Positions 548-36,901 of a stretch of DNA of 64,000 nt are shown one piece after another. Location of the stretch: the NCBI GenBank assembly GCA_016926735.1, contig JAFGOA010000011.1:1-64000 (forward strand). The letters are read 5' to 3'. This DNA is from Promethearchaeota archaeon. GTDB taxonomy: Archaea; Asgardarchaeota; Lokiarchaeia; Sigyniarchaeales; SOKP01. Position 1 is the stretch's first letter; the number at the start of each line of letters is the position of its first letter. The notes beneath the pieces are model-generated. The model was not told the origin of the DNA, made no database searches, and saw only the letters and a program-made list of their open reading frames with translations. The translations under genes and the position numbers were made by a program.

Positions 548-644
548 GGACTTGTAGCCAAGCTTGGATTGTTAGAAAAACTAACCCAAAAATGGCGTCG
601 GACTTCTAATCCGAAGATCGCAGGTTCAAATCCTGCCAGGTCCA
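548..644 (+). tRNA. tRNA-Arg(UCU) with a probable D-loop intron
   Basis: The acceptor stem pairs GGACTTG (548-554) with CAGGTCC (637-643), and A644 is the discriminator; CCA is not encoded. The anticodon stem is TCGGA/TCCGA with loop CTTCTAA, anticodon TCT at 605-607. The T arm is GCAGG-TTCAAAT-CCTGC. The D stem GCCA/TGGC (557-560/593-596) encloses 32 bases, far too long for a D-loop. The extra bases fold as TTGG, a 3-nt bulge ATT, a GTTAG/CTAAC hairpin, CCAA, and a 3-nt bulge AAA, which is an archaeal bulge-helix-bulge. Cutting after the second base of each bulge gives a normal D-loop. Confidence 0.93.
570..591 (+). other. Probable tRNA intron (22 nt) in the D-loop
   Basis: The central 4-bp helix is TTGG (564-567) with CCAA (586-589). 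It is flanked by 3-nt bulges ATT (568-570) and AAA (590-592) on opposite strands, and the inner hairpin is GTTAG/CTAAC around AAAAA. This matches the consensus substrate of the archaeal tRNA splicing endonuclease. Cleavage at AT|T and AA|A removes 22 nt and leaves D-loop AGCTTGGATA. The boundaries are inferred from the motif, not observed. Confidence 0.8.
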
Positions 645-1735: not shown

Positions 1736-1790
1736 ATTTTTTCTTATTTTAATTTAAATTATAAGTATTTTATCTAAATTGTGTATTATT

Positions 1791-2036
1791 TTAATATCTT
1801 TTTGTTATGAACCATTGCAAAAAATCTAGACCTTTCTCGATCAACTTTCTTGCATCTATGTTATATAGACAAGATGCCTTAGTGGCCTTCACCGGACGGT
1901 CTTGAGCACGAATTGTGGGTCTCCTCAGATTTTCTGTGGTCTGATTGACGAAAGTGCGATTACTTGTACCGTATTCAAATCGAACTGAATTGGGATATTC
2001 TTTCTCCTTCCAATGACACAATGTTTTGATACACAC
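1791..2036 (-). pseudogene. Possible insertion-sequence remnant, no intact gene
   Basis: An 81-codon open frame lies in a patch that is visibly richer in G+C than the rest of the window and uses codons unlike its neighbours. The encoded peptide has no start context, membrane segment or motif I can name. Its arginine-rich, Trp/Phe-ending C-terminus (ending FITKRY) is only loosely transposase-like. Just beyond its 5' side, TAGTCCCA (2054-2061) and TGGGACTA (2162-2169) form a perfect 8-bp inverted pair. I read the region as a decayed mobile element, at low confidence. Confidence 0.3.
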
Positions 2037-2053
2037 ACTGAGTAATATAGAGG

Positions 2054-2169
2054 TAGTCCCAATGGCGTATATGAATGATAAAATTTCCTAAATACTTCGA
2101 AATAGTTGGAATACGTGGTTCGTATATGAATTATAATCGTATATGGATTTATCTTAACTTCTGGGACTA
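2054..2169. repeat. Perfect 8-bp inverted pair TAGTCCCA/TGGGACTA
   Basis: The arms lie at 2054-2061 and 2162-2169, about 100 bases apart. The interval also contains three CGTATATG words, at about 2065, 2129 and 2149. It borders the higher-GC remnant at 1791-2036, so it could be what is left of transposon ends. Eight matching bases across 116 can also occur by chance. Confidence 0.35.
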
Positions 2170-2288
2170 TAAATTACCCATAAATTATTTATAAAAAATT
2201 AGGAATTTTTATTGCTTATTATTATATATTTAGAATATTTTTTTTTTCCATTAAGTTCTCTATTAATTATGAATAAAGAATTAAATGG

Positions 2289-36799: not shown

Positions 36800-36901
36800 T
36801 GGACCTGACGGGGATTGAACCCGTGACCTCATGATTGCGAACTTCACGTTATTAGATGTATTATCCAATAAACACGCGATCTTCCACTAATCTACAGGCC
36901 C
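36800..36901 (-). tRNA. tRNA-Ala(CGC) with a probable intron at 30/31
   Basis: On the minus strand the acceptor stem GGGCCTG pairs with CAGGTCC, with the G3:U70 pair that marks alanine tRNA; A73 is at 36800. D arm GATT...GATC, T arm ACGGG-TTCAATC-CCCGT, variable loop AGGTC. The anticodon loop TTCGCAA (anticodon CGC at 36839-36837) is followed by TCATG, but its 5' partner CGTG is 30 nt too far away. Removing the bulge-helix-bulge intron gives CGTGG-TTCGCAA-TCATG, a normal arm with wobble pairs. Confidence 0.93.
36843..36872 (-). other. Probable tRNA intron (30 nt) at position 30/31
   Basis: Read on the minus strand, the central helix is CGCG with CGTG (one G-U). It is flanked by 3-nt bulges TGT and AAG, and the inner 9-bp hairpin TTATTGGAT/ATCTAATAA closes on AATAC. 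Cutting TG|T and AA|G removes exactly 30 nt. The same geometry explains the tRNA-Arg intron at 570-591, which strengthens both calls. Confidence 0.8.

What the first reader, a model, noticed from the sequence alone, without database searches (positions are those of the whole stretch)
548..644. tRNA-Arg(UCU) with an intron in the D-loop
The D-stem encloses 32 nt that fold into a bulge-helix-bulge: TTGG/CCAA between 3-nt bulges ATT and AAA, inner hairpin GTTAG/CTAAC. Cutting as the archaeal endonuclease does removes 22 nt and leaves a normal D-loop. Most archaeal tRNA introns sit at 37/38; D-loop introns are rare outside some Thermoproteota.
Basis: partly seen in the sequence, partly recalled or inferred. 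Interest (0 to 1): 0.72.

Follow-up and report, generated by a model that had tools for sequence, protein, structure and literature searches.

The report
Lokiarchaeial tRNA-Arg with D-loop intron
A transfer-RNA gene of a Lokiarchaeia archaeon carries a 22-base intron in its D-loop that the cell's tRNA-splicing enzyme very probably cuts out; this is a real but already known kind of archaeal tRNA intron.

Summary
Window 548-644 (+) is a tRNA-Arg(UCU) gene whose D-loop holds a 22-nt insert (570-591) between positions 20a and 21. The precursor folds into a cloverleaf with a bulge-helix-bulge (BHB) in the D arm. ARAGORN recognises the gene only after the insert is removed. The cut predicted from the fold restores a 10-nt D-loop one base away from that of intronless relatives; 25 of 49 Lokiarchaeial orthologs lack an insert, 24 have one. 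The genome encodes a catalytic EndA subunit with intact active site and the Lys-Pro-Arg of the 'Crenarchaea-specific loop', plus a degenerate partner: the (alpha-beta)2 type linked to broad specificity (PMC6379350, PMC12397907, passages). The sister species shares the intron, and no other tRNA-Arg(UCU) was detected there. An intronless tRNA-Arg(UCU) does exist in the window's genome, in a chromosomal tRNA array, but is very different in sequence (41 of 75 columns identical); the window copy does not look like a pseudogene. D-arm introns are known in archaea, and non-canonical tRNA introns abound in other Asgard archaea (PMC11291895, passages). Verdict: a new member of a known kind.

The parts
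548..569 (+). 5' exon of tRNA-Arg(UCU): acceptor 5' strand, positions 8-9, D-stem 5' strand, D-loop A14-T20a (22 nt)
   Evidence: matches intronless orthologs
570..591 (+). 22-nt intron TGTTAGAAAAACTAACCCAAAA, between tRNA positions 20a and 21
   Evidence: only strict BHB solution; its removal gives an ARAGORN tRNA-Arg(tct) of 75 nt
592..644 (+). 3' exon: A21, D-stem 3' strand, anticodon arm, variable loop, T arm, acceptor 3' strand, discriminator A (53 nt)
   Evidence: (Rfam tRNA 33.7 bits over 584-636)
564..567 (+). BHB central helix, 5' strand TTGG (pairs with 586-589)
568..570 (+). 5' bulge ATT, predicted cut after 569
   Evidence: cut rule inferred from the known EndA mechanism
571..585 (+). 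inner hairpin GTTAG-AAAAA-CTAAC
586..589 (+). BHB central helix, 3' strand CCAA
590..592 (+). 3' bulge AAA (faces AGC 561-563 as an internal loop), predicted cut after 591
605..607 (+). anticodon TCT (Arg, AGA)

Best explanation
Window 548-644 is a functional tRNA-Arg(UCU) gene of a Lokiarchaeia archaeon, interrupted by a 22-nt BHB intron between positions 20a and 21 in the D-loop. The precursor folds as a cloverleaf with a relaxed BHB in the D arm (shown by computation). A heterotetrameric (alpha-beta)2 splicing endonuclease, whose alpha subunit carries the crenarchaeal-type recognition loop, cuts in both 3-nt bulges after the second base, and the exons are ligated, giving a 75-nt tRNA with a 10-nt D-loop AGCTTGGATA (inferred from known EndA chemistry, not observed).
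For: Unique strict BHB solution equals the junction of intronless orthologs; removal gives an ARAGORN tRNA; shuffles 1/100,000 and 1/30,000. 25 of 49 orthologs are intronless with D-loop AGCCTGGATA (17), AGCATGGATA (5), AGCCCGGATA (2), AGCCTGGATT (1). The spliced window tRNA differs from its nearest intronless relatives at 3 of 75 positions and from the spliced sister at 1 of 75. In the sister (L055, named record JAGXOA010000195.1 = L142) the helices of the intron are unchanged while the hairpin loop differs and is one base longer. In 14 of 24 insert-bearing orthologs a 4/4 central-helix BHB restores the 10-nt D-loop, in 4 more a 3/4 one. EndA alpha aligns to A. pernix EndA over 181 residues, E 7e-36, with Tyr, His, Lys and the CSL Lys-Pro-Arg kept; the second subunit lacks the Tyr and His. 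AGA is 371 of 551 Arg codons in 28 long window ORFs, so a UCU tRNA is needed.
Against: No RNA data: splicing is inferred. The BHB lacks an outer helix flush with the 3' bulge, so it is relaxed. In 6 of 24 insert-bearing orthologs the scan found no BHB restoring the 10-nt D-loop (G001, G002, G003, G005, G023, G043). The own genome holds a second, intronless tRNA-Arg(UCU) in an array, so the window gene may not be the only source of this tRNA there. The isolated D arm folds only modestly better than shuffles.
Confidence: 0.93

Rival explanations
1. The gene is a pseudogene: an insertion destroyed it, and the intronless arrayed tRNA-Arg(UCU) on contig C157 does the work.
For: A second, intact, intronless tRNA-Arg(UCU) exists in the same genome (C157:7778-7849), on a contig with chromosomal synteny to the sister.
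Against: All stems are intact and the body differs from intronless relatives at only 3 of 75 positions. The sister species keeps both gene and intron, with 1 of 75 exon differences, and no other UCU tRNA was detected there. The insert is a BHB whose removal restores the family's D-loop form.
Confidence: 0.03
2. The tRNA works with an enlarged, unspliced D-loop.
For: Exons and stems stay paired in the unspliced fold.
Against: The cut restores the conserved D-loop; ARAGORN does not accept the unspliced form; the organism has a broad-type splicing endonuclease and other tRNAs with BHB introns.
Confidence: 0.02
3. The insert is an intron but with other cut sites, in a shifted BHB register.
For: A neighbouring register leaving AGCTTGGATT|AA has central 3/4 and inner 4.
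Against: That register gives a worse helix and a D-loop unlike any of the 25 intronless orthologs.
Confidence: 0.02

Closest known systems
Crenarchaeal D-arm tRNA introns (S. tokodaii tRNA-Glu, A. pernix tRNA-Thr(UGU-1); PMC4307357, passages read)
   Same: Short BHB intron in the D arm of a tRNA in an organism with EndA; for S. tokodaii tRNA-Glu, EndA cleavage at the predicted sites was shown.
   Different: Different phylum (Promethearchaeota, Lokiarchaeia) and different tRNA; here cleavage has not been tested.
Non-canonical tRNA introns of Atabeyarchaeia and Freyarchaeia (Asgard; PMC11291895, passages read)
   Same: Asgard archaea, abundant tRNA introns, often at non-canonical positions.
   Different: Other classes; the passages I read do not name tRNA-Arg(UCU) or position 20a/21, and the supplement was not read. 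Here intron presence and absence differ between close relatives.
(alpha-beta)2 EndA of Aeropyrum pernix (PDB 3P1Z, 3AJV)
   Same: Catalytic alpha subunit with Tyr/His/Lys and CSL Lys-Pro-Arg at the same aligned places; separate degenerate partner subunit.
   Different: 40% identity for alpha; assembly and specificity untested here.

Membership tests
Archaeal BHB tRNA intron | Two 3-nt bulges separated by a 4-bp helix, followed by an inner helix | tested here: met
   TTGG/CCAA, bulges ATT and AAA, 5-bp inner helix
Archaeal BHB tRNA intron | Canonical (strict) form, with an outer helix flush with the 3' bulge; not required of the relaxed form | tested here: not met
   outer = 0; AGC faces AAA. 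Relaxed forms are an accepted part of the family (PMC6379350, passages)
Archaeal BHB tRNA intron | Removal at the predicted cuts restores a normal tRNA | tested here: met
   ARAGORN; junction of 25 intronless orthologs
Archaeal BHB tRNA intron | Genome encodes the splicing endonuclease | tested here: met
   two PF01974+PF02778 proteins
Archaeal BHB tRNA intron | Excision and ligation in the cell | not testable with these tools
   no RNA data
Broad-specificity (alpha-beta)2 EndA | Catalytic subunit with Tyr/His/Lys plus separate structural subunit | tested here: met
   alpha keeps all three; partner has Phe for Tyr and no His. Which residues are the triad is recalled
Broad-specificity (alpha-beta)2 EndA | CSL with conserved Lys, Pro, Arg/Lys (K44-P45-R46 in A. 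pernix) | tested here: met
   (GISKPR against DVEKPR, ungapped); role of the residues from PMC12397907 passages
Broad-specificity (alpha-beta)2 EndA | Heterotetramer that cleaves relaxed BHBs | not testable with these tools
   needs protein and an in vitro assay
tRNA pseudogene | Broken stems or relaxed conservation | tested here: not met
   3 of 75 differences from the nearest intronless relatives; all stems paired

The most novel reading that the evidence does not exclude
Some Lokiarchaeia keep two parallel tRNA repertoires: a scattered set rich in BHB introns at several positions, to which the window gene belongs, and a second set of 26 almost entirely intronless genes covering all 20 amino acids, in conserved order in chromosomal arrays. 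The arrayed set would let translation run without tRNA splicing (for example when splicing is limiting or when infection damages tRNAs), which would relax selection on the scattered set and explain rapid intron gain and loss in it.
Probability: 0.15. Interest if true: 0.65.

Novelty: new member of a known kind. Interest (0 to 1): 0.32.

Why it matters
The gene is a clean natural experiment: in related Lokiarchaeia the same tRNA-Arg(UCU) occurs with no intron, with a D-loop intron at 20a/21, 19/20 or about 17/17a, and with added T-loop inserts. That makes intron gain, loss and choice of position directly comparable among close relatives, in the archaeal phylum thought nearest to eukaryotes (recalled), and ties it to a splicing endonuclease that carries the broad-specificity loop. 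It also shows that annotation can miss such genes: ARAGORN found neither of the window's two intron-bearing tRNA genes.

Tried and rejected
Considered and rejected: pseudogene (body conserved, sister keeps it), enlarged unspliced D-loop, shifted cut register, and contamination as the source of the arrayed second copy (contig C157 is syntenic with sister contig C266, proteins 77-87% identical). The isolated D arm gives only z -1.58, so folding energy of the fragment alone is weak evidence. No covariance-model score for the spliced form was obtained.

Inventory limits: in the whole-genome tRNA searches only 150 of 312 (own) and 150 of 283 (sister) candidates were scored, so tRNA lists are lower bounds, and 'no second UCU tRNA in the sister' means none among those detected, in a 98% complete genome of about 290 contigs. 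Of 65 family genomes, 49 gave a readable full-length tRNA-Arg(UCU); G012 was cut by a contig end, and 15 gave none by BLAST or pattern except arrayed copies in G014 and G016; introns in the 3' half could hide the gene there. A second reading of some own tRNAs with relaxed motifs (Glu-UUC, Glu-CUC, Pro-GGG, a Met-like gene on C166, a Leu-like gene on C130) gave no convincing solution, and they are not counted. A GC-richer stretch (window 1790-2170) was checked as possible structured RNA: z -0.46, matches in only 2 of 64 other genomes, so not pursued.

Full report
What is there. The gene at window 548-644 (+) has a complete cloverleaf: acceptor GGACTTG/CAGGTCC, D-stem GCCA/TGGC, anticodon arm with TCT at 605-607, T arm GCAGG/CCTGC and discriminator A. 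ARAGORN finds no tRNA in the window and Rfam's tRNA model matches only 584-636, with 33.7 bits. The D-stem encloses 32 nt. With 22 nt left out (570-591), ARAGORN calls tRNA-Arg(tct) over all 75 nt, and it does not call the unspliced form.

Is it more than chance. Shuffling the insert between fixed exons gave central 4/4 with inner helix >=5 in 1 of 100,000 mononucleotide and 1 of 30,000 dinucleotide shuffles. The whole precursor folds at -34.0 kcal/mol into cloverleaf plus BHB, z -4.57, 0 of 200 shuffles as good; the isolated D arm is weaker (z -1.58, 13 of 200). The 3' bulge faces three bases rather than a flush outer helix (outer = 0), so the motif is of the relaxed kind.

Comparison. A search of 65 genomes of the family gave matches in 59. 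All 44 named contigs that carry the 3' exon pattern are titled Candidatus Lokiarchaeota or Lokiarchaeia. Of 49 genomes with a readable full-length tRNA-Arg(UCU), 25 have a 10-nt D-loop without insert and 24 have a D-loop insert, 12 of these with a T-loop insert as well. The intronless D-loops are AGCCTGGATA (17), AGCATGGATA (5), AGCCCGGATA (2) and AGCCTGGATT (1); the spliced window gene gives AGCTTGGATA. The spliced gene differs from its nearest intronless relatives at 3 of 75 positions. In 14 of 24 insert-bearing genes a central-4/4 BHB restores the 10-nt D-loop and in 4 more a 3/4 one does; in 6 the scan found none that does (counted from the listing). Positions differ: 20a/21 in the window's genus, 19/20 in several others, about 17/17a in G011 (numbering assigned by me). 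Within one genus (g8) the second inner pair occurs as G-C, G-T and A-T, a small sign of structural constraint.

The sister. G009 (same genus; the same sequence is in named record JAGXOA010000195.1, L142) has the same intron; its helices are identical and its hairpin loop differs and is one base longer. Its exons differ from the window's at 1 of 75 positions. Among tRNAs detected in the sister no other tRNA-Arg(UCU) was found; the one 'tct' call is, by my reading, a misreading of a two-intron tRNA-Gly-like gene. Only 150 of 283 candidates were scored there.

The enzyme. The genome has two proteins with both tRNA-intron endonuclease domains. One (203 aa) matches A. pernix EndA best (PDB 3P1Z, E 7e-36) and keeps the Tyr, His and Lys of the active site; the other (202 aa) has Phe for Tyr and lacks the His. 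The first also aligns without gap over the Crenarchaea-specific loop and keeps Lys-Pro-Arg, the residues named K44, P45 and R46 in A. pernix (PMC12397907, passages). According to PMC6379350 (passages) only (alpha-beta)2 and epsilon2 enzymes remove relaxed-BHB introns efficiently. So the enzyme fits the substrate.

Not an isolated case. In the same genome strict D-arm BHB introns with an ARAGORN-accepted product occur in tRNA-Pro(UGG) and tRNA-Cys(GCA) and in tRNA-His(GUG), which needs a second intron removed. The sister shows one in tRNA-Gln(UUG) where the window's genome has an intronless tRNA-Gln(UUG). Introns elsewhere: T-loop in Lys(CUU) and Arg(CCU), variable region in Arg(UCG), and 30/31 in Ala(CGC) inside the window (positions assigned by me).

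The second copy. A second intact tRNA-Arg(UCU) lies at C157:7778-7849. It is one of 26 genes on contigs C157 and C42 that together cover all 20 amino acids; ARAGORN reads 25 without intron and one (Phe) with one (a further tRNA call on C42, 8358-8492, is not part of the array). C157 carries Asgard-type genes (my reading) and is syntenic with sister contig C266, so contamination is unlikely. The arrayed gene matches the window's mature tRNA at 41 of 75 aligned columns, so it is not a recent duplicate that would make the window gene a relic. The half-array with Arg(UCU) was not found at the syntenic place in the sister.

What is known. D-arm introns are known in archaea: position 20/21 is in the list of PMC4090602 (passages); S. 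tokodaii tRNA-Glu and A. pernix tRNA-Thr have D-arm introns, and cleavage was shown for the former (PMC4307357, passages). tRNAscan-SE 2.0 reports 673 non-canonical introns in 217 archaeal genomes (PMC8450103, passages). In Asgard archaea, 92-95% of tRNA genes of three Atabeyarchaeia and Freyarchaeia genomes contain introns, often at non-canonical positions (PMC11291895, passages). My searches for Lokiarchaeial tRNA introns listed no paper devoted to them, but only an open-licence library was searched. So this is a new member of a known kind.

Verdict. What is shown: sequence, fold, junction, endonuclease genes. What is inferred: actual cleavage, ligation and function.

Noticed in passing
window 36800-36901 (-): A second tRNA gene of the window, Ala(CGC), with a 30-nt BHB intron at about 36843-36872 (position 30/31 by my reading); ARAGORN misses it until the intron is left out.
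   Followed up: partly
G000 contigs C157:7086-8394, C157:12331-13605, C42:7266-7742 (L086, L087, L088): 26 tightly packed tRNA genes, 25 intronless, covering all 20 amino acids, including Ile(UAU) and only one Met(CAU). A similar isotype order recurs in G016, G012 and G014 and part of it in sister G009, with much diverged sequences. Six other family genomes show no comparable clusters. A 2019 survey found archaeal clusters only in halophiles and methanogens (PMC6333295, passages).
   Followed up: partly
L103 (G011), L104, L105, L083, L100, L204-L210: tRNA-Arg(UCU) genes with both a D-loop and a T-loop insert, 12 of 49 Lokiarchaeial genomes.
   Followed up: partly
L074 (G043) and L079 (G023): D-loop insert made of AGCC/TAGC repeats shared by genomes of two genera; no BHB restoring the usual D-loop was found.
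   Followed up: no
G000:C62:248-693 (L043, L221); G009:C224 and C234 (L190, L192): Degenerate tRNA-like sequences, several close together, with odd anticodon arms.
   Followed up: no
window 1790-2170: GC-richer stretch with a short open frame; matches only 2 of 64 other family genomes, fold not unusual (z -0.46); perhaps a gene remnant.
   Followed up: partly
L103 (G011), just upstream of the tRNA-Arg gene: A partial extra copy of the 5' half of tRNA-Arg(UCU) lies upstream of the gene.
   Followed up: no
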